Below, piece after piece: positions 6,635-22,713 of a DNA stretch of 64,000 nt (position 1 is the stretch's first letter; every line of letters begins with the position of its first letter). The stretch is from Halosegnis rubeus (lineage in GTDB: Archaea > Halobacteriota > Halobacteria > Halobacteriales > Haloarculaceae), in the NCBI RefSeq assembly GCF_009184545.1, contig NZ_QJOW01000002.1, positions 434,001 through 498,000 on the forward strand, in the 5' to 3' direction. Position numbers and translations under genes: made by a program. Under the pieces are notes generated by a model. It did not search any database. It saw only the letters and a program-made list of their open reading frames with translations, and was not told where the DNA came from.

Positions 6635-7041
6635 CGACGACCTGCGCCGACTGCGAGACGTTTGTCACGCGAACGAGCTAGCTTTTGGACGAGTATGCAC
6701 ATACTGAATGAAATCAACTGCAAACGGTTAACTGTTGATTGGGATGTCTCCAAGCGATGGAAGGTGATTATATGCGACTAAACGCCGACAAGACGAATGC
6801 GCTCCTTGCGTGATTCCCTCTCGCCGGTGCCGACTACCGAGTAACCCAGACAGCGGCTCGCGAGTCGCGTAGGCTCCGGCTGTGGTCCGGTGGTTGCGAA
6901 GTATCGCGAAGGCCCCGGTGGTCGGCCACTGCTCGCCGCTGGCGGTCTTCTGCGTCCACGTCGAGAATCCGTACCTTGTCGGCTAGTCTGTCGTCGACGG
7001 TCTCGCTACGAGTGTTCGGAACTCACCGCAGGCAACTGTCG
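6635..7041. other. intergenic region, no gene recognised
   Basis: About 400 bases separate the NadE-like gene start from the lipoprotein gene end. Short open frames exist on both strands but none has convincing codon use or a recognisable product. The stretch from about 6680 to 6790 is AT-richer and should hold the promoter of the NadE-like gene. An imperfect palindrome with arms TCAAC/GTTGA lies near 6714-6738. No RNA gene could be folded by eye. Confidence 0.4.
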
Positions 7042-7806
7042 TTACGAGTGGCTGAACTCCTGCAGAATCACCGTGCTGCCCAGTCCCTCTTTGCTGTACC
7101 TGACGCTGATTTGATACTCGGCTTCGACCCCGATAGTCAGGGTGTCTCCCGGAACGAATTGCGACCGCTGCGTCGCCTCGGCGACTGTCACGCCGTCGGT
7201 CGAGATGTCGGGGTTGGCACCCTCGGGATCCACTATCGTCCCGCGGAACGTCAGTCCCTTCGCGGTAAGCGGTCCACCACCACTGTGTCTAACCGTCAGT
7301 ACACCGGTCTCGTCGCTGCTGGTCGGTGCCGAGTCGAACTCTGCGTCCATGAAGGCAGACGGCGGTCCCAGCGCCTCCCCATCGATGATGAGTCCACCGA
7401 CGATGAAAATCTGTCCGATGTACCACTCTTCTCTGGCCTCGGACAATCGAAAGGAGACCTCTTCCGTCCGCGACTCTCCCTGGTGCGTGATCGTAAGATC
7501 TGTCTCGAGAATCACGTACGTCCGTTCGCGAGTAGTTCGCCGCAAATCCCCGCGCTCGAACGTGTACTCTCCGATGTTGTCCGCCGTGAACGCACCGGCA
7601 GCCCACGACCCCACGGATTCGTCCACTGCGTCGGGGTCGTTCTCGTTCACGCCGGTGATGAACTGGTCGACAACTGCTTTTTGCGGCTTCAACTGGGACG
7701 ATTCTCCGCCCCCGTTGAGTCGGTTCAAACTCGCCGAGCAGCCGGCAAGCGCTACCATCGACAGACCCCCCGTGGTCGTCAGAAACTGTCGGCGTCGAGA
7801 TGGCAT
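7042..7806 (-). CDS. Tat-exported lipoprotein, function unknown
   Basis: 254 residues. The start at 7806 places a twin-arginine signal (MPSRRRQFLTTTGG) at the N-terminus, followed by the lipobox LAGC, so the mature protein should be a lipid-anchored cell-surface protein with Cys at about residue 22. An upstream in-frame ATG would put ten residues before the signal and is less likely. The mature part has an N-terminal region resembling SnoaL/NTF2-like spacing (VVDQFITGVNENDPDAVDE) and a C-terminal beta-rich segment. No enzyme motif is visible. Such proteins are abundant in haloarchaea and mostly uncharacterised. Confidence 0.8.
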   Translation of the reverse strand: MPSRRRQFLTTTGGLSMVALAGCSASLNRLNGGGESSQLKPQKAVVDQFITGVNENDPDAVDESVGSWAAGAFTADNIGEYTFERGDLRRTTRERTYVILETDLTITHQGESRTEEVSFRLSEAREEWYIGQIFIVGGLIIDGEALGPPSAFMDAEFDSAPTSSDETGVLTVRHSGGGPLTAKGLTFRGTIVDPEGANPDISTDGVTVAEATQRSQFVPGDTLTIGVEAEYQISVRYSKEGLGSTVILQEFSHS

Positions 7807-8008
7807 GACGTGTACAAGTCGGGAGTGAGGCTTCAATCCACCGGCAGATGCGGGCCGTCGTCCGTTTCTGAAAAGAGGTGGGTGCTACAGCCAGTCGATG
7901 CCCTCGATTCCGCACTCGTCGGGGGCAATACCGTCCGGAATGGCGGACGCACTTACAGTGAGTCCCCCCGAGACTTGTCAGTACACTCTGTAAAAAGTAT
8001 AAGTAGGG

Positions 8009-8068
8009 ATGCACCGACCGCGATTTGAACGCGGGTTGTGACCATGGCAAGGTCACGTGATACCACTA
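8009..8068 (-). repeat. left attachment site (partial tRNA-Gly copy)
   Basis: Identical over 60 bases to 21560-21619. It contains the anticodon arm, T arm and 3' acceptor strand of tRNA-Gly but lacks the 5' 12 bases, so it cannot fold an acceptor stem. On the coding strand, the host DNA beyond it (7981-8008) carries a T run that would have followed the tRNA before integration. Confidence 0.93.
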
Positions 8069-8086
8069 TCCCAAACGGCCGATTTT

Positions 8087-8103
8087 GCAGCACATATTGC
8101 TGC
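8087..8103. repeat. inverted repeat beside left attachment site
   Basis: GCAGCA (8087-8092) and TGCTGC (8098-8103) form a perfect 6-bp inverted repeat with a 5-base spacer, 18 bases inside the element. It could be an integrase or excisionase arm site, or a terminator for the genes arriving from the right; position is the only support. Confidence 0.35.
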
Positions 8104-8171
8104 TTCCCCGGTTTTCTGCTACCTAATTACCGATAGCACTACATCTCACATAAACCCTCGTTAGCGAAACC

Positions 8172-8197
8172 ACGTAACCGCGATGAAGATGTTACGT
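8172..8197. repeat. inverted repeat ACGTAAC/GTTACGT
   Basis: ACGTAAC (8172-8178) and GTTACGT (8191-8197) form a perfect 7-bp inverted repeat with a 12-base spacer, between the left attachment site and the first gene. The spacing resembles a dimeric regulator operator or an integrase arm site. No T run follows, which argues against a simple terminator. Confidence 0.4.
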
Positions 8198-8236
8198 AGA
8201 ACTACACAATACGTCTCTAACTGGTACACCGCTGTA

Positions 8237-8461
8237 CTATTCCGGACGTAAGTCACGCCAGCGAAAATCCATCTGACCCCCGCTATCGAGTTCTACCCGA
8301 TAGATTACTTCATCACGCGGGTCACCAGTCTCGGAATCTGCATCGTCATTCATCGCGAGAACTACTCTCCCACACTCCCCATGATATTTCTCGTGGTCGA
8401 GGTCACCCTTATCGGGAATGTCAATCCGTACACGGTCACCCTTCTCGAAGCGATTCACCAT
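8237..8461 (-). CDS. small L21e-like (SH3-fold) protein
   Basis: 74 residues from the ATG at 8461. The pattern FEKGDRVRIDIPD, then YHGECGRVVLA, then YRVEL and a final WRDLRPE matches the order seen in archaeal ribosomal protein L21e (FEEGDKVHI, FHGRTGTV, EHLRP), but the basic N-terminal extension of L21e is missing. It is therefore probably an SH3-like barrel protein that binds nucleic acid or ribosomes. It is the last gene of a minus-strand run of small proteins in the element. L21e kinship is my inference from pattern; KOW-type proteins are an alternative. Confidence 0.65.
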   Translation of the reverse strand: MVNRFEKGDRVRIDIPDKGDLDHEKYHGECGRVVLAMNDDADSETGDPRDEVIYRVELDSGGQMDFRWRDLRPE

Positions 8462-8491
8462 TCGTGAAAAGATAACCAACGGCGAATTGGC

Positions 8492-8644
8492 TTAGTCTTG
8501 TTCTACTCTGGTCCACTCACATCCGCACGCCTTGCAAGTGAACTGACGCTTCGTCACTGTCGGCTCTGACTTTGTGTGTACCCACACACTACCACTCCGC
8601 CCACACTTCGCACATGACTCGTTAGATGGGTGAGCAACCGGCAT
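8492..8644 (-). CDS. 50-residue zinc-ribbon protein (TFIIS-ribbon-like)
   Basis: The ATG at 8644 gives a compact protein of 50 residues that is almost entirely one zinc ribbon: CAKCG near residue 10 and CKACGCEW near 36. The layout C-x2-C, a central beta segment (VWVHTKSE), then F-x-C-x2-C-G-x-x-W is that of the C-terminal ribbon of archaeal TFS/eukaryotic TFIIS. The acidic Asp-Glu pair needed for RNA cleavage is absent from the hairpin. It starts a few bases after the stop of the zinc-finger gene upstream, so it probably belongs to the same transcript. It could bind RNA polymerase or simply DNA. Confidence 0.65.
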   Translation of the reverse strand: MPVAHPSNESCAKCGRSGSVWVHTKSEPTVTKRQFTCKACGCEWTRVEQD

Positions 8645-8651
8645 CAGTATC

Positions 8652-9524
8652 TTACGCTCGCTTGCGTAGTTCCTTGTGGAAGCTCCGTTCTGTCCGGTCT
8701 CCTTCCAGAACCTCAGCACCGTAGCGGTAGACCTCGATAAGCCCGCGGGCTATCTCTGGTGTCCATCCCTCAACCGCTGCTACTTGCTCCAGCCTGTCAG
8801 CCACCTCGCGAGCCTCATTTGCGGTATAGAGCGCGGACTCCCCGCGGCATGAAACCATCAGGCGCTCGCCCTCCAGTGCGGTAGTCAACCGGTGTTCTGT
8901 CACCTCCGCTCGTCCTTGTGCGAGTAGGGATTCAAACAGCGCCGGATGTGGTGGTTCGCCACGCTTCGCGGAAATCGCATTATCGACTCCGAGAAGGCCG
9001 CGGCGGACTCGGTGAGCCATCCGCGGTTCATCGTCTGCCAGCAGCGTAGCAATGAACTGATACACCCGCTGGCGAGGAATATCAGCTGAACTCTTCGTGG
9101 TCTCTTCCGTTACATCTGCCCGGTTTGGGACAACTGTGATATTGCCTTGCTCATCCAGCTCCACCTGCGGGAAGTCTGCCTCTGTGTGGTCGGCTGCCGC
9201 GTTCTCGGGGTGATTTTTTCTCCCGGCTACCTGTCCAAGATGGATGAGTACGCCATTTGCTCCTCTGAATGGCAGCGAACAGTAGGGGCACAAACGCGCC
9301 GAGTCTTCCGTCTCACGCTCTTCGGGGTAATCCATCGTTACCTCCCGCTCGCCGACTGTATCGAGGTTCTCGAAGTTGACCGAATCCGGTATCTCTCCTT
9401 GTGGACCGTGGCCGTTACCGGTCGTCTGACGAACGTGGAGATTGATGCCCCGAGCTAATGGAGTCGCATCACAGCCATCTACCGGACACCTCACAGTCCG
9501 CTCGTCGTTGCTGTGGTCCGTCAT
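8652..9524 (-). CDS. zinc-finger protein of mobile-element type
   Basis: 290 residues with two Cys/His clusters: CPVDGCDATPLARGINLHV near residue 13 and CPYCSLPFRGANGVLIHLG near 79, each followed by a further His. They resemble C2H2-like fingers. The rest is helical and carries no catalytic signature I recognise. The ATG overlaps the stop of the upstream gene by 4 bases (9521-9524), and the ribbon gene follows within 10 bases, so the three form one operon. DNA binding is the likely activity. Similar multi-finger proteins occur on haloarchaeal plasmids and proviruses; no precise function is known to me. Confidence 0.7.
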   Translation of the reverse strand: MTDHSNDERTVRCPVDGCDATPLARGINLHVRQTTGNGHGPQGEIPDSVNFENLDTVGEREVTMDYPEERETEDSARLCPYCSLPFRGANGVLIHLGQVAGRKNHPENAAADHTEADFPQVELDEQGNITVVPNRADVTEETTKSSADIPRQRVYQFIATLLADDEPRMAHRVRRGLLGVDNAISAKRGEPPHPALFESLLAQGRAEVTEHRLTTALEGERLMVSCRGESALYTANEAREVADRLEQVAAVEGWTPEIARGLIEVYRYGAEVLEGDRTERSFHKELRKRA

Positions 9525-9847
9525 TGGTTCCTCGCAGTGAAGCAGTCAAAACACGGCAGCTCATCGCTCTCTGGACCCGGACACCATGCTTCGTCGTTCA
9601 CGCAAGGCAGAGACGTTCCCTCTGTCTGCTTCGAGAACGCCGCCAGACCCCCTCCGGAACGTTTCAGTGGCGCGTGGGTTATCGCCTTCGTCATTACCCC
9701 CTCATCTGCGGTAGTCGGAACAGTACTCGCTGTCGTGACGGAAGATTCAGGTTCCGTCGATAGGTTAGCTTTCATTGGCGTTCTGCTATCCAGAAGGCCA
9801 CTCGTCCGGTGTTGTCGCACCGGGCGTTTTCGCGTATCACGCCCCAT
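9521..9847 (-). CDS. hypothetical protein with C-terminal cysteine cluster
   Basis: 108 residues if translated from the ATG at 9847; a second ATG at 9775 would remove an arginine-rich leader. The N-terminal two-thirds is Ser/Thr-rich and probably disordered. The last 30 residues hold four cysteines (C-x6-C-x9-C-x2-C in CVNDEAWC and CFDCF), which could bind one zinc ion. Its stop overlaps the start of the zinc-finger gene by 4 bases, which is the best evidence that it is real. I do not recognise a family. Confidence 0.5.
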   Translation of the reverse strand: MGRDTRKRPVRQHRTSGLLDSRTPMKANLSTEPESSVTTASTVPTTADEGVMTKAITHAPLKRSGGGLAAFSKQTEGTSLPCVNDEAWCPGPESDELPCFDCFTARNQ

Positions 9848-9951
9848 AGGGTGAGCGCCCTTCTACCAATAACTACGAGGTTAATGGAGTAAAGTCTTTC
9901 CCAGTAACCACAAGGTCAGAGGAACTTTCACACCGCGCACAAAGAGCGGGT

Positions 9952-10182
9952 ATGGGCCGCGAACGCGACGATTCTGGCAAATACACCAATGAGGTATCGC
10001 TTACCCGGGTTATCTCTGTATTTGAACGTGCCGAGATTCCCGTTTTAACGGCCAGCGAGGTCGCGGACAAGATTGACTGCTCACGGCCGACAGCATATAA
10101 CAAACTTGAGACACTGGTCAAACAGGGAGAAATTCAAAAAAAGAAGGTCGGGGCACGAGCGGTCGTGTATATCCGAATGTGA
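9952..10182 (+). CDS. winged-helix DNA-binding protein
   Basis: 76 residues. An HTH is evident in LTASEVADKIDCSRPTAYNK followed by KLETLVKQGEIQKKKVGARA, a typical winged-helix domain with a basic wing at the C-terminus. It is transcribed away from the small zinc-protein operon, and the roughly 100-base gap between them would suit an operator and divergent promoters. It is probably the regulator of the element's left genes. No ligand-binding domain is present. Confidence 0.8.
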   Translation: MGRERDDSGKYTNEVSLTRVISVFERAEIPVLTASEVADKIDCSRPTAYNKLETLVKQGEIQKKKVGARAVVYIRM

Positions 10183-10499
10183 GAGTAATCCACCAGCTGC
10201 TTGGCTTTCAAACCGGTTATTACACCAACTGGAACTTCCATCTGAATTATTAGTAACCCTCCGCGCGAAGATATGTCGAATTTGCCTGAATTTTGGGCTA
10301 TTCTGTTCTGACGTAGTTGAATCAAATTTTGGCGTTGTTACCACTGTTATTCTCGTCCTAAATCGTGCAATATATAAGCGAGCGTAATCATAGTGTAGTA
10401 GAGGCAGTTCTCAGATAGTCAACTTCTGGGAGCTACCGCTGTTCTGGCAATCATAGCATATGTATTGCCAGCCTCGGCTATGCCTCTCAATAATTAGTA
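10183..10499. other. AT-rich intergenic region upstream of helicase gene
   Basis: About 317 bases without a convincing gene, clearly AT-richer than the chromosome. A TATATAAG element at 10371-10378 is the strongest promoter candidate. Short open frames on either strand lack coding character. A replication or maintenance site could lie here, but I see no iterated repeats that would prove it. Confidence 0.4.
10371..10378 (+). promoter_or_regulatory. TATA-box-like element before helicase gene
   Basis: TATATAAG fits an archaeal TATA box. Transcription would start near 10400, leaving a leader of about 100 bases before the GTG at 10500, longer than usual for haloarchaea, so an additional small start or a different promoter is possible. 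Confidence 0.35.
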
Positions 10500-12467
10500 G
10501 TGGAAAATAACACCTGCACAAGCGATAGCAACGGACAGAATACGAACCAAGAAGTGACGAACAGTGGACCAACGACGGAAGAGATTCGTAACTCTCTGAA
10601 GTCAATTATTCACGAAACCATGCAGAACGGCGGAAACGCCGTAATTGAGGCACCGACATCCTCTGGAAAGACGTACACCGTTAGTACAACCAACTGGCGG
10701 GACCATCCTGAGATTGCTGGTGAACAGCCCGTTATCATGCTATCTGGAAGCAAGAAAGCCCGAGACAGTGCATTTGAACAGGGTAAAAGCTCATCTGCTG
10801 CCACAAAACGGCTGAGAGGACGTGAAGATACGTGTCCGCTTGCTTGGGGCGAGTATGACGAAGGAGAAAACAAAGTAATCGCTCCCGAGGGTATGGCCCC
10901 CTCTGCTTGGTTTGATGAGATGTGTAACACACGTGGCCATACATTCTCATTCGCGCACGGAGTATTTGAGAGAGCATATGACGGAGACCTACCCTGCTCT
11001 GAAGACGGAAAGTGTGCCTCTGCGGAACAGTGGGATGCCATCTCTCAGAAAGACGGAGAGGCTCATGATTACGATGTTCTCCATGCAACCCACATGTTCG
11101 CTCGGGTTCCCCAGCTGATTGTTGATTCTAACGTCGTCATTGACGAGTCTCCCGACTATTCAGTGAACCTCCCAAAGGGTCGGCTACGGGAGTCAGTTAC
11201 CAGCTACTTGGGTGAAATTGATGCGGACGTGAGCAGATGGGCAGATACAGTAACGCTACTCCGTCAAGGAGCACTACCTGAGGGATTCGCTGAGTCATTG
11301 GAAGACCCCGGTCGTGAGTGGTTCCGCGACGATTCAAATGCCCATGCACTCACGCCGGGAATCACCCGAGCGATAGCGACCGCCGAAGAGCGTTGTCACA
11401 ACCTGTGGGTTGGTGAGAGTGAATACTCGTATCCAGAACTAATACCGAACCGGGATACACCAGACAACAACATCACAATCAGAATTGTATTTGATGAGAA
11501 CAACGAAGTCCGGCTGCTGCAAGCGATTCCCGACTTCGAGAAGGCGCGGAGTATCATCGGGCTTGACGCATTTCCGACTATGCCACTGTGGGAGGGAAAT
11601 GTCCTGAAATCGCTTACATCGAAACAGGTGGTTGGTGATGAAGCCAAGCATCAGTGGCGTCGAAATACCCGCGAGCTACGAATCGTCCAAATTGGTGATA
11701 ACAAGAATACGTGGACAAGAAACGGATTCAATGAAGCGAAGGTGCGTGCTCTTGTTGAGGAACTACGCTGGCAGCACGGCGATGACTTTCAGACCGGAAT
11801 CACTTCGAAACGGTTCGAACCGCAATTACAAGAGATACTGACTGATGCCGATATAACAACCCCACAGACGCTTCACCTCGGTAATGAGAAGTCACTGAAT
11901 GACTTCGACTCCGAAGGGGTTGGATTGGTTGCAGGATGTATCAGCCCCAGTAGTGACCATATCAAAACGTGGTTAGCACTTCTTGACGGTGATGCAGCTC
12001 CGAAGCGAGAGTGCTTCAGCGATTATCAGGGGCAAGAGTGGCTTGGGCCGGGTTCATCAGTAGCCATGGAATTGCTAAACGATGTCCAACTCAACCACGT
12101 ATTGCAGTCCTGTGGACGGTATGCCCGTTCTCCAGAGAAGGACGACAGCGGCGCTACTGTCTATGTTCTATCCAATGTCCTTCCAGCTGAATGGACTGAC
12201 AAGAGCGTAGATGACGTTACTGTGCTTGGAAAGAAACAAAGAGATATTCTCGAATATCTGCGTCTCAACGAGAAAGTAGCTCCCTCCAGTATCGAGCAAC
12301 AGCTCGACGTTACCAGAAAATACGTACATGATACTTTGAATAAATACACAGACTATCCGTGGTTCAAAATGGAAGAGACAGAGGGTCACAATGAGCCGAA
12401 CTTGTACTCTACCGAACGGTGTCCGTCAGGGATTTTGGATATATCAGATACCCAAGGTGTGAACTGA
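10500..12467 (+). CDS. DinG/XPD-like SF2 helicase with putative Fe-S cysteines
   Basis: 655 residues from a GTG. Walker A APTSSGKT is at 51-58 and Walker B VIDES at 213-217. Exactly four cysteines lie between them (112, 142, 166, 172), the place where XPD/DinG/Rad3 helicases hold a 4Fe-4S cluster. A histidine-containing segment DVLHATHMF just before motif II recalls the XPD pattern. In the C-terminal half, QSCGRYARS looks like helicase motif VI. The last 90 residues (KKQRDILEYLRLNEKV and on) form a predicted winged helix. It should unwind or remodel DNA during replication or maintenance of the element. Sequence is AT-rich, consistent with horizontal origin. Fe-S assignment is inference. Confidence 0.75.
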   Translation: MENNTCTSDSNGQNTNQEVTNSGPTTEEIRNSLKSIIHETMQNGGNAVIEAPTSSGKTYTVSTTNWRDHPEIAGEQPVIMLSGSKKARDSAFEQGKSSSAATKRLRGREDTCPLAWGEYDEGENKVIAPEGMAPSAWFDEMCNTRGHTFSFAHGVFERAYDGDLPCSEDGKCASAEQWDAISQKDGEAHDYDVLHATHMFARVPQLIVDSNVVIDESPDYSVNLPKGRLRESVTSYLGEIDADVSRWADTVTLLRQGALPEGFAESLEDPGREWFRDDSNAHALTPGITRAIATAEERCHNLWVGESEYSYPELIPNRDTPDNNITIRIVFDENNEVRLLQAIPDFEKARSIIGLDAFPTMPLWEGNVLKSLTSKQVVGDEAKHQWRRNTRELRIVQIGDNKNTWTRNGFNEAKVRALVEELRWQHGDDFQTGITSKRFEPQLQEILTDADITTPQTLHLGNEKSLNDFDSEGVGLVAGCISPSSDHIKTWLALLDGDAAPKRECFSDYQGQEWLGPGSSVAMELLNDVQLNHVLQSCGRYARSPEKDDSGATVYVLSNVLPAEWTDKSVDDVTVLGKKQRDILEYLRLNEKVAPSSIEQQLDVTRKYVHDTLNKYTDYPWFKMEETEGHNEPNLYSTERCPSGILDISDTQGVN

Positions 12468-12747
12468 CCTCTACTAATGTTAATATTACAGCCAATTCAC
12501 ACCCCCCCAACAACTTAGCCGAACGTTAGCCTCGATAACCCCGCCGGTTCTATTCGAAGATTGGTAATGAGAATAGACTGCAACTGCCGGGTGTCGCTCC
12601 TCGCTCGCTCCCTCCGGTCGCTCGCTGCGGTGCGATACCGGGCCAACAACCTTCTCGCAGAGACCTATTCGCCGGCCTTCTCGCGGAGACCTTTGGTCAT
12701 GTAGACAAGCGGCTCACTAATTCAATGTCTGCCTGCAATGCTTGGTC
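12468..12747. other. convergent intergenic region with two hairpins
   Basis: 280 bases between the helicase gene and the YgjP-like gene, which converge here. A perfect 7-bp stem TCTATTC/GAATAGA is at 12549-12555 and 12571-12577. A larger imperfect hairpin with arms around CCGGGTGTCGC and GCGATACCGGG spans 12587-12642. Downstream, CCTTCTCGC-GAGACCT occurs twice (about 12651-12666 and 12677-12692) as a near-perfect direct repeat. No coding sequence is seen. The hairpins probably serve as terminators or are small repeat elements. Confidence 0.5.
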
Positions 12748-13470
12748 CTATACGTCTTGTTGCGAGAAGACCAGCCGCGTACTGTTCGAGTCAAGCCACT
12801 CAGAGTGTTCCGCGTAGTCCGGGTCGTACTCTGCAACGAGCGACCAAAACGAATCGTTATGACTTGACTCCTGAAGATGAGCCAATTCGTGAATCACGAT
12901 GTAGTCTACTATCTCTGGCGGAGCCATCATCAGCCGCCAATTGAATCCAAGCGTGCCTGTCGTGGAACAGGAACCGAACTTGGTTCGCTGGTTCCGTATC
13001 TCAATTTGTTCGTACTCTACGCCCATCCGGTCAGCAAAGTGCTTCGCTCGCTGCTCAAACACTTCACGTGCTTTGCGTTGATAGAGTGTCTCAAGAGCAC
13101 GTTTGACTGAGGTCTCCTCAACATGGTGGCGGGCCAACCGTAGGGTGTCCGTAGTAACGTCTGATGACGAACGACGTTCTACCACGACCTCGCGCTCGGA
13201 GCCGAGATACGGGAACATCGCGCCCTCTTCGTGCTTCCGGTCTGGAACCTGCTCACGGTACGTATCGTACTTCTCTTTCTTCTCTATGACCCATACCGCG
13301 TTCTGTTTGAGCAGCTCCTCAGGATGCTCTTCTGCTGTCTGTGGGACAACGACCGTGACGCCGTGAATATCCACGTCAATGCGCGGTTCAGTCGCGTCAA
13401 CACTCCGTCGGAGGTCGTACTCGATGGACTGGCCCAGTAGCTCTACAGTCCGGCGTTTGGTCTCAGCCAT
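12748..13470 (-). CDS. YgjP-like (DUF45, COG1451) metallopeptidase of RM operon
   Basis: 240 residues from the ATG at 13470. The C-terminal region holds the family signature: FGSCST near 165, NWRLMMAPP near 177, then HELAHL at 194-199 with the third ligand His at 204 (SSHNDSFW). This is the SprT/WSS-related zinc peptidase fold. Its start overlaps the hsdR stop by 8 bases, so it is translated with hsdR. COG1451 genes are known to accompany type I restriction genes in many bacteria and archaea; the function there is unproven, possibly proteolytic control of HsdR or of DNA-protein complexes. A longer upstream start lies inside hsdR and is unlikely. Confidence 0.88.
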   Translation of the reverse strand: MAETKRRTVELLGQSIEYDLRRSVDATEPRIDVDIHGVTVVVPQTAEEHPEELLKQNAVWVIEKKEKYDTYREQVPDRKHEEGAMFPYLGSEREVVVERRSSSDVTTDTLRLARHHVEETSVKRALETLYQRKAREVFEQRAKHFADRMGVEYEQIEIRNQRTKFGSCSTTGTLGFNWRLMMAPPEIVDYIVIHELAHLQESSHNDSFWSLVAEYDPDYAEHSEWLDSNSTRLVFSQQDV

Positions 13471-16423
13471 TATTCTGGATGAGATAGTTCCGTACGTCGT
13501 CAACGAATCCGTCATCATCTTGGATGAGGTGGCCGAGGTCGTGCTCTACGACTAACACATCCAGCAAGATTCGTTCAATCTCCGCGATGGTCTGCTGGTT
13601 TGTCTTCCAGCCAGAGTACCCTCGGTCAACGCGGTCACGGAACTGTGTGACAACCGCCTCTGCGACTCTCTCCGCCTGCTCATCGGACTCTATCGCCTCG
13701 GCTGTCTCCTCGGTCAAGTGCGTGTAGATGGCGAACTCGGCGGCTTCCATTCCCTCGTTATCGGCTTCTCTCTCAACGTTCAACACCTCTTTCTCAATCG
13801 ATTTGAGTGCTTCAACCGCTTCGGGGTCGCCAATCTCATCGCCCTGCCACCGTTCCACTATATCAGTCACCCGCTCACTTAGCCGCTTGTACCGGGGATT
13901 CTGATTCTCGCGTGGATGGAGATGCTCGCGGGTTGCGTGCGCTATCTGTGAAGCCTTGACGCCGGGGTTATCGAGGCCTTCAGCGTCTTCGAGAATCTCC
14001 TCGCCAAGCTTGTAGGTCGGGAAGTCACGCTTAATCTCCGAAATATCAACATGCTTGTTGATTATCTCCCGCGTCTTCTCGCGCATCTCCTTCTCGGGGT
14101 CGTCGTCGCCTGAGGTCGTACGCTTGAACGCGACGTGAATCCGGCTCAGCCACTTGTAGTCTCGTTCGATACCCTCACTTACGAGTCGCCCATCGGGTGC
14201 GACGGCTTCGTAGAGATTCTGAAGCCGGCGGAAGTTCTGCTTGAACTCGCGGCGTTCCGGGTGCGTGCTGACGCGTTCAATGGCCTCGGAGGTCGCTTCT
14301 TGCGTGTCAGTCTTCGGAATCCCATCGAAAATGCCCATTACCCGCTCAACCTGCTCAACGAGGTCATTGTAGAGTTCGTCTTTGTCGCGGGCGGCGTAGG
14401 CTTTCGTCTCGGCGTCGTAGTCAAGCGCCTCGTCGATGTTCTCGAAGACGCCTTGGAAGTCCACAATCTCGCCATTCTCTTTCCCTGCAGCAGGCCGGTT
14501 CGTCCGGGCGATAGCCTGCATTAGATTGTGATTTTTGAGATTGCGGTCAAGATACATCGTCTTGAGTATCGGCGCGTCGAAGCCTGTGAGGAGCATATTG
14601 TGGACGACGAGGAGTTTCGGGTTCCCCTGCTCTTTGAACGCCTTGACGATACTGTCACGCTCCTCAGAGTCCGTATGGAACTGCTTGATGAGGTCGGAAT
14701 CGTCCTTGGTCGAAGTATAGAGAACCTCTATCTCCTCAGCTCCCCGTCGCTCGGCTAATCGTTCTCCGTACATCGCTGCCGACCGCCGGCTCGGAGTGAC
14801 AACCATGCCCTTCCACCCGTTCGGGGAAACGTGTTCGTCGTAGTGTGCGTCGATTTCCTCGGCGGCCTTCTCGACACGTGGCTCCAGCTCGGCAAGCGTC
14901 GTCGCAGTCACGCTCTCGCGGATAGCATCGCGTTTCTCGTCCGTACTCATCCCTCGAAACTCCTGCTCAAACTCCTCATCAAGCCCTGCTTCGTCAATGT
15001 CCCACTCCATCTCATGTCGGAGCGTGAAGTACACAGGGAGGATTAGGCCGTCGTCAATCCCCTGCTTGACCGAGTACCGGTGAAGGTAGTCCTCACCCTC
15101 TGGAGAGAACTCGCGGAAGGTGTTCTTGTCCTTCTCGCGTTCTCCCTCGCGGACAGGTGTGCCGGTGAACCCGAAGTGGTAGCAGTTCGGAAGTGCGGCT
15201 TCGAGTCGGCTCCCGAGGTCAGCCTCCATGAAGCGGTGCGCCTCGTCACTCATCACGACGACCTCATCATTCCCTTGTACGTCGGGGTCAACATCCTCGA
15301 ACTTCTGGATGGTCGTGAGGACAAGCTGGCTGCTTCCCTCCTCGATGAGCTGCTGGAGGTGGTCAATGCTCTCGGCCTCCGTCCACTGCTCCAGCGAGAG
15401 ATTCGCCAGCTGGTCGCGCATCTGACTGTTGAGCTTGTCCGTATCAACGATGATGAACACCTGCGGATTCCGGGCAACGTTGGGCCTCGAAAGTAGATTC
15501 TCGGCGGCATACAACATTGTGAACGACTTGCCCGACCCCTGTGTGTGCCAGATGAGTCCGCGCTTGTGGTCGGCGGTTCTCACGCGGTCAAGGATGCGAT
15601 TCACGGCGTAATACTGCATGTAACGCGGGATGATTTTCGCGTCACCACCCGCACGCCGCTCGTAGAATACGAAGTGCTTCAGCAGGTCAAGAATCGAACC
15701 GGGGTTACACAGCGCCCGGATTGCCTGCCGCATCTCGTTCTCGTCGGCAAACTCGTCAGGGGCGTCATTCCATGGCTCATAGAACTCCGTGGGTGCGCCA
15801 ACAGCACCGTAGCGAAGTTCCATCGTATCCGCGGCGACGTTGAACAGGCCGGGCACGAACAGCCGAGACACATCCTCCTCGTAGTCCTTCAGGTCGCGGA
15901 CCGCATCGTGCCAGTCGTTGTCCTGTGCGAGACTTTTCAGCTCCATCGTCACGAGCGGAATCCCGTTCACGAACAGCGTCACGTCCGGGCGGATGGTCGT
16001 CTCGCGGGCGACGGAGAACTGATTCACCGCGTGGAAGCGGTTACTCTCGGGGTTCTCGTAGTCGATGAGGTCAACGTAGATGGTGTCGGCGGTTCCGTCG
16101 GAACGTTGGACGCTGAACGATTTGCCTTTCGTGAGCAATCGGTGGAAGGCTTGATTCCCGTCCATCAGGTTCTCGGTATCGAGGTCGCGACGAAGCGAGG
16201 AGATGAATTTATCAACGTTGTCCTCGGTCACGGCCTCGTTGAGGGCGACGACCTGCTCCGCGAGCAGTTTCCAGTAGATGACCGCGTGGCTGTCGCGCTC
16301 GTAGGCGTCATCGAGAACGTTCGCACCGCGTCCGCCGTCCTGTCCGTGTGTCTCCCACCCGACGCCGTCGAGCCACGAGAGAATAGAGCGTTCGACGCCG
16401 GCTTCCGACGGGAGACTAACCAT
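13463..16423 (-). CDS. hsdR: type I restriction enzyme, R (motor/nuclease) subunit
   Basis: 986 residues. An N-terminal PD-(D/E)xK nuclease domain carries Asp147 and Glu161-Leu-Lys163. The translocase part has Walker A TQGSGKS at 294-300, DEAH at 393-396 and TGTP at 420-423, with motif VI-like IARTNRPA further on. The C-terminal helical region contacts the methylase complex. HsdR cuts unmodified foreign DNA after ATP-driven translocation, together with HsdM and HsdS. All catalytic residues I can check are present, so it looks functional. It overlaps hsdS and the YgjP gene by 8 bases each. Confidence 0.96.
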   Translation of the reverse strand: MVSLPSEAGVERSILSWLDGVGWETHGQDGGRGANVLDDAYERDSHAVIYWKLLAEQVVALNEAVTEDNVDKFISSLRRDLDTENLMDGNQAFHRLLTKGKSFSVQRSDGTADTIYVDLIDYENPESNRFHAVNQFSVARETTIRPDVTLFVNGIPLVTMELKSLAQDNDWHDAVRDLKDYEEDVSRLFVPGLFNVAADTMELRYGAVGAPTEFYEPWNDAPDEFADENEMRQAIRALCNPGSILDLLKHFVFYERRAGGDAKIIPRYMQYYAVNRILDRVRTADHKRGLIWHTQGSGKSFTMLYAAENLLSRPNVARNPQVFIIVDTDKLNSQMRDQLANLSLEQWTEAESIDHLQQLIEEGSSQLVLTTIQKFEDVDPDVQGNDEVVVMSDEAHRFMEADLGSRLEAALPNCYHFGFTGTPVREGEREKDKNTFREFSPEGEDYLHRYSVKQGIDDGLILPVYFTLRHEMEWDIDEAGLDEEFEQEFRGMSTDEKRDAIRESVTATTLAELEPRVEKAAEEIDAHYDEHVSPNGWKGMVVTPSRRSAAMYGERLAERRGAEEIEVLYTSTKDDSDLIKQFHTDSEERDSIVKAFKEQGNPKLLVVHNMLLTGFDAPILKTMYLDRNLKNHNLMQAIARTNRPAAGKENGEIVDFQGVFENIDEALDYDAETKAYAARDKDELYNDLVEQVERVMGIFDGIPKTDTQEATSEAIERVSTHPERREFKQNFRRLQNLYEAVAPDGRLVSEGIERDYKWLSRIHVAFKRTTSGDDDPEKEMREKTREIINKHVDISEIKRDFPTYKLGEEILEDAEGLDNPGVKASQIAHATREHLHPRENQNPRYKRLSERVTDIVERWQGDEIGDPEAVEALKSIEKEVLNVEREADNEGMEAAEFAIYTHLTEETAEAIESDEQAERVAEAVVTQFRDRVDRGYSGWKTNQQTIAEIERILLDVLVVEHDLGHLIQDDDGFVDDVRNYLIQNNG

Positions 16424-17699
16424 ACTGGGCGATGTCGTCAGGCACCTCTATGGTAGTGTCGGTCGTTCGGACTGTTCCCGAGAGGAGGTCCTGCATGAGA
16501 CCGCGCTTGAGACGTTTCAACCCCGTCAAATATTCGATATTCGAATGTCTAGCTTCATCGTAAATCGAGAGCGTGTCAACAATTTCCTGTTGCTCCTCAA
16601 GTGGCGGATTGAATATCGCGAAAGATTCGAAACTGCTCTTATTCACGATTGGGGTTGCTGTTTGTCCAGCCTGAGATTTGATGAAATCAGAGAGGACTTG
16701 CAGATGGTAATACAGGAATTCCGGAAGATAGGACTCATCTTCAATAACAACAGAGTTGATTTGCTGGTTAGTCGCCACTTCGCATCCCGAAATTGCAACT
16801 TTACCCATATCACTCCCAATACAGTCCATCATTACCGACCCCTCCGGTATGGGTTTAGCCTCGTTTCGGCCTGCTTCAGATAACGTCCTGCTGGATTCAA
16901 TCACGTACTTACCCTGAGATAGAGTTGCAGGGGTGACGAATGGTAGAGTTCCTCCAAAGTTACTCTCATTATCCGTGGATGGTGTGTCTCCTGTGACAAC
17001 CTTCCCAATTGAGGATATTTCTGTTGTCTCCCAAGTTATTGGTATTTGGAACTGCTTCGGCCCAAGCCGTTCCGTTTTCGTTTCTATGTCGGGTTTTTTT
17101 CTCTGTTTCTCTTTCCCGAATAGCGAACGGAGCAAGCCCTGTTGGACAGTATGCATCTGCTCAACAGTCTCCTCAGTCTTCTCAATCGCCCGGTCAACCG
17201 TGTAGAGTACGGTGGCGATTTTGCGCTGTTCGGGGAGTGGTGGGGAGGGAACAGTAACATTCCCTATAGTTGATTGGTTTAGGAGAGGTTGGGCCGTTTT
17301 GGTCGCGAGAGAACTCAATTCTTTATTTGACAAGAAGTAATAAAGGAAGTCCGTGTTACACTTGTCGGTCACGCTGGCTTGAATCGCGTTATCGGAAACC
17401 CACGCAGGTTCTTGGACTCGTTCAACCTCACCAACTGCCCCGACACGACCGAATATTAGCCCCCCGTCGAAATTCGATTCCGAGTAAGAGCCGATAGGCC
17501 CGTTTGAACCATAGACAAGAAACTGTTGTTCCCCAATTTCTGCGTGGTTCGTTGCTTTCCCATTACGCAACGCACACAATTCATTAACGTTCTTCGTGTC
17601 CCAATCTACCGGGAGTTGCCCTGCCGCAGTTTCAACGAACTCCCCATCTACCTCTGATTCGTCTTCAACAAACTCGTCCAGCGTAGCCTCCTCACTCAT
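16416..17699 (-). CDS. hsdS: type I restriction enzyme, specificity subunit
   Basis: 427 residues with the two-part layout of HsdS. Each half is a target-recognition domain followed by a conserved helix: PLPEQRKIATVL near 155 and PPLEEQQEIVDTL near 380. The spacer helices contain TVEQMHTVQQGLLRSLFG and GLKRLKRGLMQDLLSG. HsdS sets the bipartite DNA target for both methylation and cutting; the target itself cannot be read by eye. The gene is the most AT-rich of the operon, as is common for recombining specificity genes. It overlaps hsdM and hsdR by 8 bases. Confidence 0.95.
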   Translation of the reverse strand: MSEEATLDEFVEDESEVDGEFVETAAGQLPVDWDTKNVNELCALRNGKATNHAEIGEQQFLVYGSNGPIGSYSESNFDGGLIFGRVGAVGEVERVQEPAWVSDNAIQASVTDKCNTDFLYYFLSNKELSSLATKTAQPLLNQSTIGNVTVPSPPLPEQRKIATVLYTVDRAIEKTEETVEQMHTVQQGLLRSLFGKEKQRKKPDIETKTERLGPKQFQIPITWETTEISSIGKVVTGDTPSTDNESNFGGTLPFVTPATLSQGKYVIESSRTLSEAGRNEAKPIPEGSVMMDCIGSDMGKVAISGCEVATNQQINSVVIEDESYLPEFLYYHLQVLSDFIKSQAGQTATPIVNKSSFESFAIFNPPLEEQQEIVDTLSIYDEARHSNIEYLTGLKRLKRGLMQDLLSGTVRTTDTTIEVPDDIAQYG

Positions 17700-19218
17700 A
17701 GTTCAACGCCTCCATATGCTCGTTCATCGTCGCTTCAATCTCATCTCGCTCGGCCTGCAACTCGCGGAGTTTCGCCAGTTCTTCCTCCACGTCAATCTCC
17801 TCCTCCGGCTCCGTCGTATCGACGTACAGCGCGATATTCAGATTATAGTCATTCTCACGAATCTCGTCCAGCGCCACCGTCCGACTCACGCGTTCTTCGG
17901 TCGTCCACTCAGTAAAGTTCTCAACGATGTGGTCAACTCCCGCGTCAAGAAGCTCATTCTGATTCGATAGCTCCTGATAGAAATCCTCGTCTGCGGCGTG
18001 AATGAACTGCACCTCGTCCTCACGCTCGGCTGGCTTGTCCGTGTTCAGCACGAGGATACCGGACGGAATCGAAACGTTCTGGAAGAGATTCTCGGGGAGG
18101 CCGACAATCGCCTCCACCATATCGTTCTCCAGCATTGGCTTCCGATACCGCCCCTCGTGCTTACGGAACAGCACGCCGTGAGGGATGACAATCGCAGCCT
18201 TTCCGCCCGCGCCGTCCGTATCAGGCCGCTTCAGTTGCTTGGCCATGTGCATGATGAACGCGTAGTCACCACGGTCGGCACGCGGCAGTTTCTCGTGCCA
18301 GTCGAACCGGCCATACGGGTCGTCCTGCAGGCCGTCCTTGTCCCAGTTGGCCGAGAACGGGAAGTTCGCCAGCACACGGTCGTAGCGCGTGAGTTCGTTC
18401 GCGTCGTCGTCAGTGAACGCCGGACTTGACAGGGAATCCTCGCGCCGTACCTCCCCGTTGAAGCCGTGGATGGAGAGGTTCATTTTCGCGATGGCGGCGA
18501 TATCAGGGTTCACCTCTTGGCCGGTGAAGGTGAGTTTCGTCGGGTCGCCACCCTGCTCGTCGCGGTAGTAGCGCGCGGCCTCGATGAGCATCCCACCGGA
18601 GCCAACCGTCGGGTCGTGGAACGTCATGCCGTCCTCGAAGGAATCGACCAGCCGCACGCAGAGATTGACAAGCTCCGGGGGCGTGAAGAACTGCCCGCCC
18701 TCCTTGCCTTCCTCCTCGGCGAAGTGGCTGACCAAGTCCATGTACGCCTCGCCGAGCACGTCCGGCGGGATGCTGTCGCGGTCAAGGTCGTGCGTGGAGA
18801 GATGTTCAACGAGCTTCCCGAGTCGGTCGTCGTCAAGCGCGTCGGCGGCGATATAATCCGCCCGGAAAACACCCTGTAGTTCGGGGTTCTCCTCTACCAG
18901 AGCCTCAAACGCATCGTTGAGGGTTTGGTCGATATTGTCGCTCGTCGCTCGAAGGTCGTCCCACAGATAGCCCTCGGGGACGATAGGTACGTCATAGAGA
19001 TTGTTTCGACGTGCGAAGTCCTCACCGTACTCCTCAAGATTCTCGGCATACTGCTTCTCGAACTCGTCGGAGATGGACTTGTAATAGACGAGCGGGAGAA
19101 TATACTCCTTGTAGTCCGTCGGGTCAACGGCGTCCCGAATTATATCGGCGCACTTGAACAGATGCGTTTCGAGGTCGTTCAAAGAGAGAGGCATATTGGT
19201 AGTGTTCTGTGGAGACAT
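17692..19218 (-). CDS. hsdM: type I restriction enzyme, adenine methylase subunit
   Basis: 508 residues from the ATG at 19218, which has an AGGA Shine-Dalgarno-like motif about 6 bases upstream; an ATG at 19194 would start at the usual family N-terminus (MPLSLNDLETHLF) and is an alternative. The N-terminal helical domain is followed by the SAM-binding motif DPTVGSGG at about 202 and the catalytic NFPF (N-P-P-F/Y class) at about 285. This fits N6-adenine methylases of type I systems. It is the first gene of the hsdM-hsdS-hsdR-ygjP operon; the C-terminus ends in a coiled coil that would contact HsdS. Confidence 0.95.
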   Translation of the reverse strand: MSPQNTTNMPLSLNDLETHLFKCADIIRDAVDPTDYKEYILPLVYYKSISDEFEKQYAENLEEYGEDFARRNNLYDVPIVPEGYLWDDLRATSDNIDQTLNDAFEALVEENPELQGVFRADYIAADALDDDRLGKLVEHLSTHDLDRDSIPPDVLGEAYMDLVSHFAEEEGKEGGQFFTPPELVNLCVRLVDSFEDGMTFHDPTVGSGGMLIEAARYYRDEQGGDPTKLTFTGQEVNPDIAAIAKMNLSIHGFNGEVRREDSLSSPAFTDDDANELTRYDRVLANFPFSANWDKDGLQDDPYGRFDWHEKLPRADRGDYAFIMHMAKQLKRPDTDGAGGKAAIVIPHGVLFRKHEGRYRKPMLENDMVEAIVGLPENLFQNVSIPSGILVLNTDKPAEREDEVQFIHAADEDFYQELSNQNELLDAGVDHIVENFTEWTTEERVSRTVALDEIRENDYNLNIALYVDTTEPEEEIDVEEELAKLRELQAERDEIEATMNEHMEALNYE

Positions 19219-19349
19219 CAAATGTCCTGCGATGGGGGTGGGGGAGACGCGATGGGCCGGACCCACCGCTTAGGAGTAAGAAAGCGGGCGTTCTCGGAAC
19301 ATACGTCGCAAGGCGAAAAAGCGGTGTATGGAAGCCCTACAGCTGTCCC

Positions 19350-20173
19350 TCACAACACTCCGTCAATGAGATGATTCAGATTCTCTCGTTCCTCCTCGGG
19401 CATCGCTTCGACTCCGCGTGCAGCTTGTGTCTCGCTTAATTCGGGAAGGTCTGCCGCAAGTCGCTCCATCTCTCCTCTATCGGCTGTTTTGGGTGAGCCG
19501 TTGCTCTCTCCACAGGAGCTTCCCCCGGTATGCCCGTGGAGGGCCTGCTTCGATGAGAATGACTGCCCACACGAATCACAAACATGCGTCTCGGCGTCTT
19601 GCTCTGTAGTCGTTTCACCACTACTCGTGTCTGTGTCCAAGTACTCCGAAAGTGTCTCTTTGACCGATTCGATACGTTCTCTGAGTTCGTCTCGCTCTGC
19701 CCGTAGCTGCCGATTTTCTTGCTTGAGTCTACGCACTTCTCTCTCAAGCTCTGCGTCTCCAGATTGACCTGATTCGCTATCGTCCCAAACCGCCGGCAGC
19801 TCGTACTCTGCTGGAATCCAGATAGGGTCGTCCCCGTCTCGCTGTTGAATACCCAACTCTTGCATTTCTGTTTGGGGTATCTTCCGGGTGTCCCCACGTG
19901 GAGCGTCAAACTCGTCTTTGTACTCGGGAAGGCTCCCCGGCAGCTCCCGACATTTCTCTTTGAATTCCTCCTTCTTATTGTAGAAGTGAATGTAGTGGCG
20001 GGCAAGCGGAGAACTGTCTTCTTCTTGTTTCGTCGTTCTGCGCTGTTTAGCACAGGTCCGACGTACCGGACACAATCTACGTACAGCCAGTAGGCCTCAT
20101 ACAATTCCTTCCGACTCTGGAACGTGGAACTGTCTTCTGTCGTGGTTTCATCAGCTGGTAGGTCAATTCCCAT
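19350..20173 (-). pseudogene. zinc-finger/coiled-coil protein gene, reading frame interrupted
   Basis: The 3' part (19350-20075 frame) encodes a sensible protein: a long coiled coil (ELEREVRRLKQENRQLRAER and on), a finger CDSCGQSFSSKQALHGH, and an acidic tail. The 5' part lies in another frame and begins MGIDLPADETTTEDSS at 20173, reading through KELYEAYWLYVDC and NSAERR. The two sensible parts meet at about 20030-20050, in an A-rich stretch (GAAACAAGAAGAAG on the coding strand), and require a -1 shift. It could be a frameshift mutation, a sequencing error or recoding. If only the 3' frame is used from 20075, the product has an odd basic leader. Confidence 0.6.
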
Positions 20174-20292
20174 ATGTGGCTCCCCCAAAGCTCTGAGCAG
20201 TATGTTAACACCCATCGGACAGTTGAAATAACTTTGGACGAAAGCACCGCGGTAAACACTGGAATACGAACTATCTCCTTGGGGCTTCTACG

Positions 20293-21426
20293 CTACCACT
20301 TGGAGTTCACTTTCCCAAGTCGCCCCTCAGCTCCCGAGTGAGCATATCCGAGCGTCGTCTCCACCTTCTTATGTCGTAACTGCTCGCGTGCGTCCTGAAT
20401 ATTTTCCTCGTCAGCCCACACAGTCGCTACGCCGTGTCGAATCGAGTACCACGTTAATTCACGTCCAGCAGGCTGAATCTCTGCCGACTCGATAAGCTTC
20501 TCAAGTAGGTAGTTCAGCGGACTTGAGCCGTACACGTTGCCCTTGTCGTTTAGCCACAGCGCGTTCGTCCCTTCGTACTTCTCGTACGTTGAACGCTCTC
20601 CGAGCCACTTCCGGAGTGTGCGGAGGCTCTTGTCTGATAGAACGCATCTCCAGTTCTCTACGTTCTTACTCGACTCCTCCTTTGGAATGTCAAGCGTGGC
20701 GTTATCGAGATTCACCCAGTCAACAGTCGCTCGTCCGACCTCAACTGGACGAAGGCCACAATCCAGCGCGACCGAGACAAGTGACGGTATCTTGAATGAG
20801 TTTGCACGCTGGAACGCTTCAGGTCCAATCTGTTCTTTCGGAGTTTCAAACCGCTGTGCAAGGACGCGCTTCAGTGCGTCTCGTTCAGCCGGCGTACACG
20901 AGTGGTAGTGCTTGACTGCTCCGTGCTTGAGCGCGGCCTCATACAGCGCCCGAAACTCGTCTTTCTTGAAGTAGTCTCGGTTGGTGACGTTTGGCTCGTT
21001 GAGATTTAGACGACACTCCCACTCGATGCTCCTCCGTCGTTCGTGGTTGTAAAACTGGAATACACGTTTGATGACCTTGACGAAGGTGTTGAGATTCGCG
21101 TCTCCGTACTCGCTGTACCGGCCAAGCTCCTTCATGAGTTGGTCGGCGTCTTCGGGTGTCAGCTCTGTCGTGTATCCGCGTTCGTTCCAGAGCCACCGCA
21201 TAATCTGGTCTGTTTTGTAGCTTGTATTCCGGACTGTACGGTCGGAGTATCCTCGGAGACGGTCGGGGTCTTTCCCCTCGGTCAGGAGCCATTCGAGTAG
21301 CTCCCGTTTCCAACTGTCATAATCTGTCTGCGCGCGGGCGTGCTGGTCTGCGAGAGAATCAATCGTCTCCTCGGCAACAATGGGAAAATCAAATGTCGCC
21401 TCTGCCGCTTCTCCAGCAAAGTTCAT
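20293..21426 (-). CDS. tyrosine recombinase integrase of the element
   Basis: 377 residues. The C-terminal catalytic domain has Arg226 (CGLRPVEVG), Tyr327-x-x-Arg330 (TWYSIRHGVAT), His352 (QLRHKK) and the nucleophile Tyr361 (TTLGYAHS). The N-terminal SAM-like core-binding domain occupies about 30-130. It would catalyse integration and excision at the tRNA-Gly sites. It lies 134 bases from the intact tRNA, the usual place for an integrase, and all catalytic residues look intact, so excision may still be possible. Confidence 0.94.
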   Translation of the reverse strand: MNFAGEAAEATFDFPIVAEETIDSLADQHARAQTDYDSWKRELLEWLLTEGKDPDRLRGYSDRTVRNTSYKTDQIMRWLWNERGYTTELTPEDADQLMKELGRYSEYGDANLNTFVKVIKRVFQFYNHERRRSIEWECRLNLNEPNVTNRDYFKKDEFRALYEAALKHGAVKHYHSCTPAERDALKRVLAQRFETPKEQIGPEAFQRANSFKIPSLVSVALDCGLRPVEVGRATVDWVNLDNATLDIPKEESSKNVENWRCVLSDKSLRTLRKWLGERSTYEKYEGTNALWLNDKGNVYGSSPLNYLLEKLIESAEIQPAGRELTWYSIRHGVATVWADEENIQDAREQLRHKKVETTLGYAHSGAEGRLGKVNSKW

Positions 21427-21559
21427 TCTGCGCCCCTCGCGCGGTCGTTTCGATGCTGCTGACTATGCGTTTCGTGTAGTGCTATCGGGTGAATCATATG
21501 TGCCTTCTTTCGTTGTTGAAGGCAGCGGAAAATGGGGAAAACGGCCGCGTTGGGGTCTC

Positions 21560-21619
21560 ATGCACCGACCGCGATTTGAACGCGGGTTGTGACCATGGCA
21601 AGGTCACGTGATACCACTA
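21560..21619 (-). repeat. right attachment site inside tRNA-Gly
   Basis: Sixty bases identical to 8009-8068. The match ends inside the D arm of the tRNA on its 5' side and one base past the discriminator on the 3' side, so integration rebuilt a complete tRNA. Confidence 0.93.
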
Positions 21620-21631
21620 CACTATCGGTGC
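21561..21631 (-). tRNA. tRNA-Gly (anticodon GCC)
   Basis: A 71-base cloverleaf on the minus strand. The acceptor stem GCACCGA pairs with TCGGTGC followed by discriminator A. The D arm contains AGTGGTA, the anticodon stem TGACC/GGTCA holds the loop TTGCCAT with anticodon GCC, and the T loop is TTCAAAT within GCG/CGC pairs. CCA is not encoded. This is the integration target of the neighbouring element. Its present 3' flank belongs to the element and has T runs that can end transcription. Confidence 0.96.
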
Positions 21632-21776
21632 GCGTCTGCGTTTCAAGCGAGAACGGTGATGAGTAAAAGGCTTCCGAAACGGGGGAGGGCGGGGCGGTCG
21701 ACACGCCGTACCGTGTGACGGCGACACACGTTGAAACGCCTGTGAACGGCCGACAGCCGGCGCGCAAAGCGGGCCA

Positions 21777-21784
21777 CTTTTATG
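21777..21784 (+). promoter_or_regulatory. TATA-like element of the ribosomal superoperon
   Basis: CTTTTATG about 60 bases before the ATG of the first gene would set a start near 21807 and a leader of about 33 bases. It is the only good TATA candidate between the tRNA and the operon. Confidence 0.4.
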
Positions 21785-21839
21785 TCCGGGTTCGGTATCG
21801 TTGTCACAGTCTAGTGAGCAGACACGGAAGCGATTCGGC

Positions 21840-22706: not shown

Positions 22707-22713
22707 GACCAGA

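What the first reader, a model, noticed from the sequence alone, without database searches (positions are those of the whole stretch)
8009..21619. Integrated element in tRNA-Gly(GCC) upstream of the ribosomal superoperon
A 60-bp perfect repeat, an intact integrase with R, H and Y catalytic residues, and an AT-shifted interior show a recent integration event about 220 bases upstream of the most conserved operon in the genome. The tRNA was rebuilt with an element-derived 3' part. The old T-rich tRNA terminator (about 7985-8002, minus sense) is now 13.6 kb away and has been replaced by T runs carried by the element.
Basis: partly seen in the sequence, partly recalled or inferred. Interest (0 to 1): 0.7.

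Follow-up and report, generated by a model that had tools for sequence, protein, structure and literature searches.

The report
tRNA-Gly island carrying restriction-modification genes
A salt-loving archaeon carries a 13.5-kb mobile DNA element that its own integrase inserted into the glycine-tRNA gene next to the ribosomal protein genes; it brought in a complete restriction-modification defence system, and both the site and the kind of element are of a known type.

Summary
A 60-bp exact direct repeat (8009-8068, 21560-21619) bounds 13,491 bp of AT-shifted DNA (54% versus 65-68% GC). Congeneric genomes lack the insert and keep the old tRNA tail (window 7965-8008) joined to tRNA-Gly(GCC), so they are natural empty sites. 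The right copy is an intact tRNA (7/7 acceptor pairs); the left is the displaced 3' fragment fused to element DNA (2/7 pairs). The integrase is intact and belongs by sequence to the haloarchaeal HSTV-2/HF2 group. Halobacterium salinarum DSM 3754 has a different, about 7.5-kb element at the same tRNA with a 73% identical integrase, and there the two copies differ by a compensatory T-stem pair, consistent with a swapped-in 3' half. Cargo: hsdM-hsdS-hsdR-ygjP (the only copy of this HsdR family in the genome, absent from five congeners), an Fe-S-helicase-like ATPase, and three small genes shared with hafunaviruses; no virion genes recognised. This is a virus-related genomic island, a new member of a known kind. 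Closeness to the ribosomal operon is ancestral. 'Recent' is weakly supported, and the His of HxxR is Tyr (pNOB8-type). One possible novelty: inverted arm-type sites flanking attP.

The parts
8009..8068 (-). attR core: displaced 3' part of tRNA-Gly(GCC), chromosomal tail at its 3' side, element DNA at its 5' side
   Evidence: exact 60-bp repeat; acceptor stem 2/7 pairs
7965..8008 (-). original 3' flank of tRNA-Gly, with the old T-rich tail (about 7985-8002)
   Evidence: joined directly to the intact tRNA in G004 and G002
8106..8123 (.). putative attP 5' arm site, CCCCGGTTTTCTGCTACC
   Evidence: imperfect inverted partner of 21518-21537 (14/18 by eye from the sequences; not tested alone)
8130..8143 (.). 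putative attP outer 5' arm site CCGATAGCACTACA, exact inverted copy at 21475-21488
8237..8479 (-). orf80, L21e/SH3-like; 60% identical to HRTV-15 gp41, which lies near that virus's attP
8492..8719 (-). orf75, CxxC zinc-ribbon-like; 48% identical to HRTV-15 gp42
8652..9524 (-). orf290, phrog_14797 (3e-50); homologues in 49 records of HF2-like viruses
9952..10182 (+). small winged-helix protein (76 aa), candidate regulator
10500..12467 (+). hel655: helicase-like ATPase with Walker A (PTSSGK), DExP, four invariant Cys, Q..GRYAR; DinG-like, wHTH-like C terminus
12748..13518 (-). YgjP-like metallopeptidase, overlaps hsdR by 56 bp
   Evidence: PF01863 8e-54
13463..16423 (-). hsdR, type I restriction subunit, 986 aa
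   Evidence: TIGR00348 2e-147; absent from five congeners
16416..17699 (-). hsdS, specificity subunit, two recognition domains
   Evidence: PF01420 2e-46
17692..19266 (-). hsdM, N6-adenine methyltransferase subunit
   Evidence: PF02384 1e-78, PF12161
19350..20075 (-). coiled-coil and C2H2-zinc-finger-like protein, 241 aa; 46% identical homologue in the G245 sister element
20293..21426 (-). tyrosine integrase, 377 aa, R226/Y327xxR330/H352/Y361
21475..21488 (.). putative attP outer 3' arm site
21518..21537 (-). putative attP 3' arm site / T-rich tRNA terminator CCCCATTTTCCGCTGCCTTC; comparable best match at +24 in HF2, H. salinarum, L002
21560..21619 (-). attL core: 3' part of the rebuilt tRNA-Gly
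21561..21631 (-). intact tRNA-Gly(GCC); the only complete copy found in the genome search

Best explanation
It is an integrated mobile element (genomic island) of about 13.55 kb. Shown: in the circular form it would carry a 60-nt copy of the 3' part of tRNA-Gly(GCC) (attP core) just upstream of its integrase gene; the same 60 nt occur in the chromosomal tRNA gene of uninserted relatives. Inferred: the integrase recombined the two, so that the 5' part of the chromosomal tRNA joined the element's identical 3' part (working tRNA, attL) and the old 3' part was pushed 13.5 kb away (fragment, attR). After integration the integrase gene lies 134 nt downstream of the tRNA on the same strand, while the DNA upstream of attP in the circle now lies at the far end; in HF2 the integrase promoter lies there, so integration probably cuts integrase off from its own promoter (inferred by analogy). 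The element has no recognised virion or conjugation genes; it shares integrase and three small genes with HF2-like haloviruses, so it is probably a virus-derived or virus-mobilised island. Its payload, a complete-looking type I restriction-modification operon, most likely protects the host, and so the element, from other incoming DNA.
For: Exact repeat and boundaries; intact versus broken tRNA; empty sites in congeners, with G004 and G002 showing window 7965/7951-8068 and 21560 onward collinear; only two copies in the genome; the integrase family sits 3' of, and on the strand of, tRNAs Thr, Glu, Arg, Leu, Gly(CCC) in nearly all loci; H. salinarum DSM 3754 element at the same tRNA, with 56/58 repeat and compensatory T-stem difference; HF2 tRNA-Thr attP beside a 43% identical integrase (PMC8707807); GC shift; RM subunits matching family models and overlapping reading frames; HsdR absent from five congeners; sister element with the same cargo but another integrase in G245.
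Against: No reads, so no excised circle or present-day activity could be shown. The 60-bp cores are identical, so the crossover point and the origin of the tRNA 3' half are not visible here, only in the H. salinarum analogue. No replication or transfer function was recognised; mobility may depend on a helper or be lost. Restriction activity is inferred from family membership. The promoter point rests on HF2 alone. The genome is a 12-contig assembly, so a collapsed circular form cannot be fully excluded.
Confidence: 0.93

Rival explanations
1. It is a decayed provirus of an HF2-like tailed virus (Hafunaviridae) that lost its virion genes and picked up a restriction system.
For: Integrase 43% identical to those of 49 HF2-like virus records; orf290 homologues in 49 such records with the same organism tallies; orf80 and orf75 match HRTV-15 gp41 and gp42, a neighbouring gene pair near its attP; viral contigs with 69% and 62% identical integrases.
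Against: No terminase, portal, capsid, tail or polymerase gene among the ORFs searched; hel655 has no match in phage records; the G245 sister has the same backbone with a different integrase, arguing for a stable island rather than random decay; integrase kinship alone is weak because integrases are exchanged.
Confidence: 0.25
2. It is a stably fixed chromosomal defence island whose integrase no longer works.
For: The tRNA site holds different material in each congener, so old insertions do decay there; the same genome holds two short integrase fragments next to tRNA-Arg and tRNA-Thr.
Against: Here the integrase ORF is full length with family-conserved catalytic residues, and the cores are 60/60 identical.
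Confidence: 0.2
3. The arrangement is an assembly artefact: a free circular plasmid joined into the chromosome through the 60-bp repeat.
For: The join lies exactly in a repeat; no reads could be checked.
Against: 60 bp is shorter than common short reads (general knowledge); contig C7 is 554 kb and continuous; the same event is seen independently in H. salinarum DSM 3754.
Confidence: 0.03

Closest known systems
Hafunaviridae (HF2, HSTV-4, HRTV-15) integrase-attP module
   Same: Integrase 43-44% identical; attP is a 57-nt 3' piece of a tRNA gene just upstream of, and co-directional with, the integrase (PMC8707807); shared orf290, orf80 and orf75 homologues.
   Different: They use tRNA-Thr(GGT), not Gly(GCC); they are complete 68-78-kb tailed viruses, whereas no virion genes were recognised here.
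Halobacterium salinarum DSM 3754 (91-R6) element at tRNA-Gly(GCC)
   Same: Same tRNA, same position upstream of the ribosomal operon, integrase 73% identical, 58-nt repeat.
   Different: About 7.5 kb; primase-like and membrane-protein-like cargo, no restriction system; no homologue of the other window element ORFs detected.
Element in G245:C24 (same family, another genus)
   Same: Shares hsdR C-terminus 82%, YgjP 72%, hel655 49%, orf290 52%, orf75 49%, cc241 46%.
   Different: Carries a different integrase (PF00589 plus SAM-like domain), no tRNA-Gly repeat found, and is cut by the contig end.
tRNA-integrated genomic islands in general (Islander class)
   Same: Regenerated tRNA plus displaced fragment mark both ends (PMC4383910 abstract).
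   Different: None of principle.

Membership tests
tRNA-integrated genomic island | direct repeat of a tRNA end at both borders | tested here: met
   60/60 identical
tRNA-integrated genomic island | uninserted relatives | tested here: met
   G004, G002 with direct continuity; other congeners also lack the insert
tRNA-integrated genomic island | integrase next to the intact tRNA | tested here: met
   int 134 nt from tRNA, same strand
tRNA-integrated genomic island | excision as a circle | not testable with these tools
   no reads
HSTV2-like archaeal integrase family (PMC8371274) | at least 30% identity over at least 60% of length to a member | tested here: met
   34.9% over residues 16-369 to HSTV-2 gp75
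HSTV2-like archaeal integrase family (PMC8371274) | PF00589 as the single Pfam domain | tested here: met
   only PF00589 above cut-off
pNOB8-type residue signature | R...YxxR...Y, gene not split on integration | tested here: met
   R226, Y327-S-I-R330, Y361; intact ORF
SNJ2-type integrase system | very short (13-14 bp) att core, CDS spanning attP | tested here: not met
   60-bp core; no CDS spans attP in the circle
Hafunaviridae provirus | terminase, portal, capsid, tail genes | tested here: not met
   no such match among the ORFs searched
Type I restriction-modification system | HsdM, HsdS, HsdR adjacent and full length | tested here: met
   overlapping frames
Type I restriction-modification system | methylation and restriction activity | not testable with these tools
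   needs methylome or assay
DinG/XPD-like Fe-S helicase (hel655) | helicase motifs and four-Cys cluster | tested here: inconclusive
   Walker A, DExP, QxxGRxxR and invariant Cys in 14 homologues; weak DinG profile hit 4e-6; no helicase chain found in PDB search

The most novel reading that the evidence does not exclude
The attP of this haloarchaeal integrase family has a lambda-like layout: a 57-60-nt tRNA core flanked by inverted arm-type sites (window: exact 14-bp pair; H. salinarum: exact 13-bp pair; HF2-like viruses: imperfect pairs at similar distances) that are independent of which tRNA is the target. Integration splits these arms and removes the upstream promoter, giving a built-in switch for direction and for integrase expression.
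Probability: 0.35. Interest if true: 0.5.

Novelty: new member of a known kind. Interest (0 to 1): 0.3.

Why it matters
It shows cleanly, with empty sites and an independent second element at the same tRNA, how an HF2-type haloarchaeal integrase uses a tRNA-Gly gene and brings a restriction-modification system into a Halobacterium-lineage genome. The inverted arm sites, if they bind integrase, would give archaeal integrases an arm-binding layout not described in the review consulted (PMC8371274) and could be tested directly. Otherwise it is an ordinary genomic island.

Tried and rejected
A CDS spanning attP in the circular form, as in pleolipoviruses (PMC7911831): none in this element. attP core in the two viral contigs with close integrases: none found in those records, nor in their fetched ends. 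hel655 in phages: no match; in PDB: only weak wHTH-like matches at its C terminus. Integrase in PDB: none. Sequence conservation of the 3' arm site alone is not significant per sequence; what recurs is its position (+23 to +26), and a T-run there may simply be the tRNA terminator. The idea that the insertion threatens the ribosomal operon was rejected: the operon side is collinear with G004 (97% over 3.5 kb), and tRNA-Gly lies within a few kb of rpl3 in most relatives examined (counted by eye). Structure prediction and Rfam were not run; they would not change the verdict.

Full report
Setting. The window lies in contig C7 of a 2.66-Mb haloarchaeal genome. Its kin include Halobacterium salinarum; the exact species is not told. 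The ribosomal superoperon starts at about 21801 on the + strand.

Repeat and tRNA. A 60-bp exact direct repeat is at 8009-8068 and 21560-21619. ARAGORN reports tRNA-Gly(GCC) at both. The right copy (21561-21631, minus) forms all seven acceptor pairs and a full cloverleaf; the left copy forms two of seven because its first bases are element DNA. A search of the whole genome with the repeat finds only these two copies, so this is the only complete tRNA-Gly(GCC) found by that search.

Empty sites. In G004, window 7965-8068 and window 21560-25104 are collinear across one intact tRNA, at 94% and 97% identity; G002 gives the same picture at 88% and 92%. G003, G005 and G001 (the last with the operon on another contig) also have a single tRNA-Gly without the insert. 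The sequence 3' of the tRNA in G004 and G002 corresponds to the T-rich tail that now lies at 7985-8002.

Integrase. The 377-aa product has PF00589 as its only significant domain. Aligned with relatives it keeps R226, Y327xxR330, H352 and Y361. The His of HxxR is Tyr throughout the family, which is the pNOB8-type signature described in PMC8371274. It is 34.9% identical over 94% of its length to the HSTV-2 integrase and 43-44% to HF2 and HSTV-4, so it meets the pairwise criterion for the HSTV2-like family. In genomes across the order the family lies beside tRNA genes: Thr(GGT), Glu, Arg(GCG), Leu, Gly(CCC), nearly always 3' of the tRNA and on its strand (exception L017). HF2-like viruses carry a 57-nt tRNA-Thr piece as probable attP at the same place (PMC8707807).

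Second element at the same tRNA. H. salinarum DSM 3754 has the same tRNA-Gly upstream of the ribosomal operon, a 73% identical integrase, and a tRNA fragment about 7.5 kb further on. The intact tRNA and the fragment match at 56 of 58 positions; the two differences are the two sides of one T-stem pair, each internally paired. The simplest reading is that the element brought its own 3' half, placing the crossover upstream of the T arm. Its other genes share nothing detectable with the window's.

Cargo. hsdM, hsdS, hsdR and a YgjP-like metallopeptidase gene form one overlapping operon. HsdR has no relative in five congeners or elsewhere in this genome. hel655 has Walker A, DExP, four invariant cysteines and a Q..GRYAR motif in an alignment of 14, suggesting a DinG/XPD-like Fe-S helicase; this remains inconclusive. 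Relatives occur in 116 of 391 haloarchaeal genomes sampled. orf290, orf75 and orf80 have homologues in HF2-like viruses, and in HRTV-15 the orf80 and orf75 homologues are neighbours near attP. A sister element in G245 carries the same backbone (hsdR end, YgjP, cc241, hel655, orf290, orf75) with a different integrase. So integrase and cargo appear to exchange as modules.

How it likely works. Shown: borders, empty sites, intact integrase ORF, complete-looking RM genes. Inferred: integrase-mediated recombination at tRNA-Gly, regeneration of the tRNA, and separation of the integrase from DNA upstream of attP. In HF2 the attP-integrase module is transcribed from one promoter upstream of attP (PMC8707807); if the same holds here, integration leaves that promoter at the far end of the element, and integrase would then rely on read-through from the tRNA. 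State-dependent integrase transcription is known in a bacterial element (abstract of PMC13023037). The restriction system would protect the host against other DNA, which is inference from family function.

Arm sites. The element DNA flanking the core contains an exact 14-bp inverted pair (8130-8143, 21475-21488), the only occurrences in the window even with two mismatches. H. salinarum has an exact 13-bp pair and HF2-like viruses mostly imperfect pairs, with local-alignment p between 0 and 0.04 on dinucleotide shuffles. In H. salinarum and the two viruses with exact 10-11-bp pairs the 3' member lies 30-42 nt from the core; the window's exact pair lies further out (62-75 and 72-85), with a second imperfect pair nearer the core found by eye. 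These may be integrase arm sites, an operator, or partly the tRNA terminator; the evidence does not decide.

Hot spot. The DNA 3' of tRNA-Gly differs in each congener: virus-like genes in G002 (a packaging-ATPase-like protein), an apparently related first gene in G004 (both match phrog_22961), other content or short gaps in the rest.

Verdict. Real, well bounded, and of a known kind. Interest is modest and lies in the clean comparative case and the untested arm sites.

Noticed in passing
L096:4234-15001 (G002): Downstream of the same tRNA-Gly, G002 holds virus-like genes including a packaging-ATPase/terminase-like protein (phrog_2666), so the site hosts unrelated elements.
   Followed up: partly
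L095:3592-7715 (G004): About 4.1 kb without counterpart in the window follows tRNA-Gly in G004, including a 352-aa protein matching phrog_22961 as in G002; looks like a remnant of another element.
   Followed up: partly
window 6783-7964: The stretch with a lipoprotein-like gene (7042-7836) left of the element has no counterpart in G004, suggesting further turnover beside the tRNA.
   Followed up: no
L140, L141 (G000 C8:251392-251664, C6:128940-129161): Two short integrase N-terminal fragments of the same family lie near tRNA-Arg(GCG) and tRNA-Thr(GGT) in this genome; probably remains of old insertions.
   Followed up: partly
window 9521-9847: Short ORF ending CPGPESDELPCFDCF resembles the C-terminal end of a SWIM-type zinc-finger protein found whole in the G245 and H. 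salinarum elements; probably a truncated gene.
   Followed up: no
window 60155-61414: A 419-aa ORF resembling an IS200/IS605-type TnpB (by eye) coincides with a local GC dip.
   Followed up: no
L103 (2860-2931, 4554-4624), L105 (2835-2906, 3166-3237): In two relatives tRNA-Gly(GCC) occurs twice, 0.3-1.7 kb apart, upstream of rpl3; duplication or small insertion not resolved.
   Followed up: no
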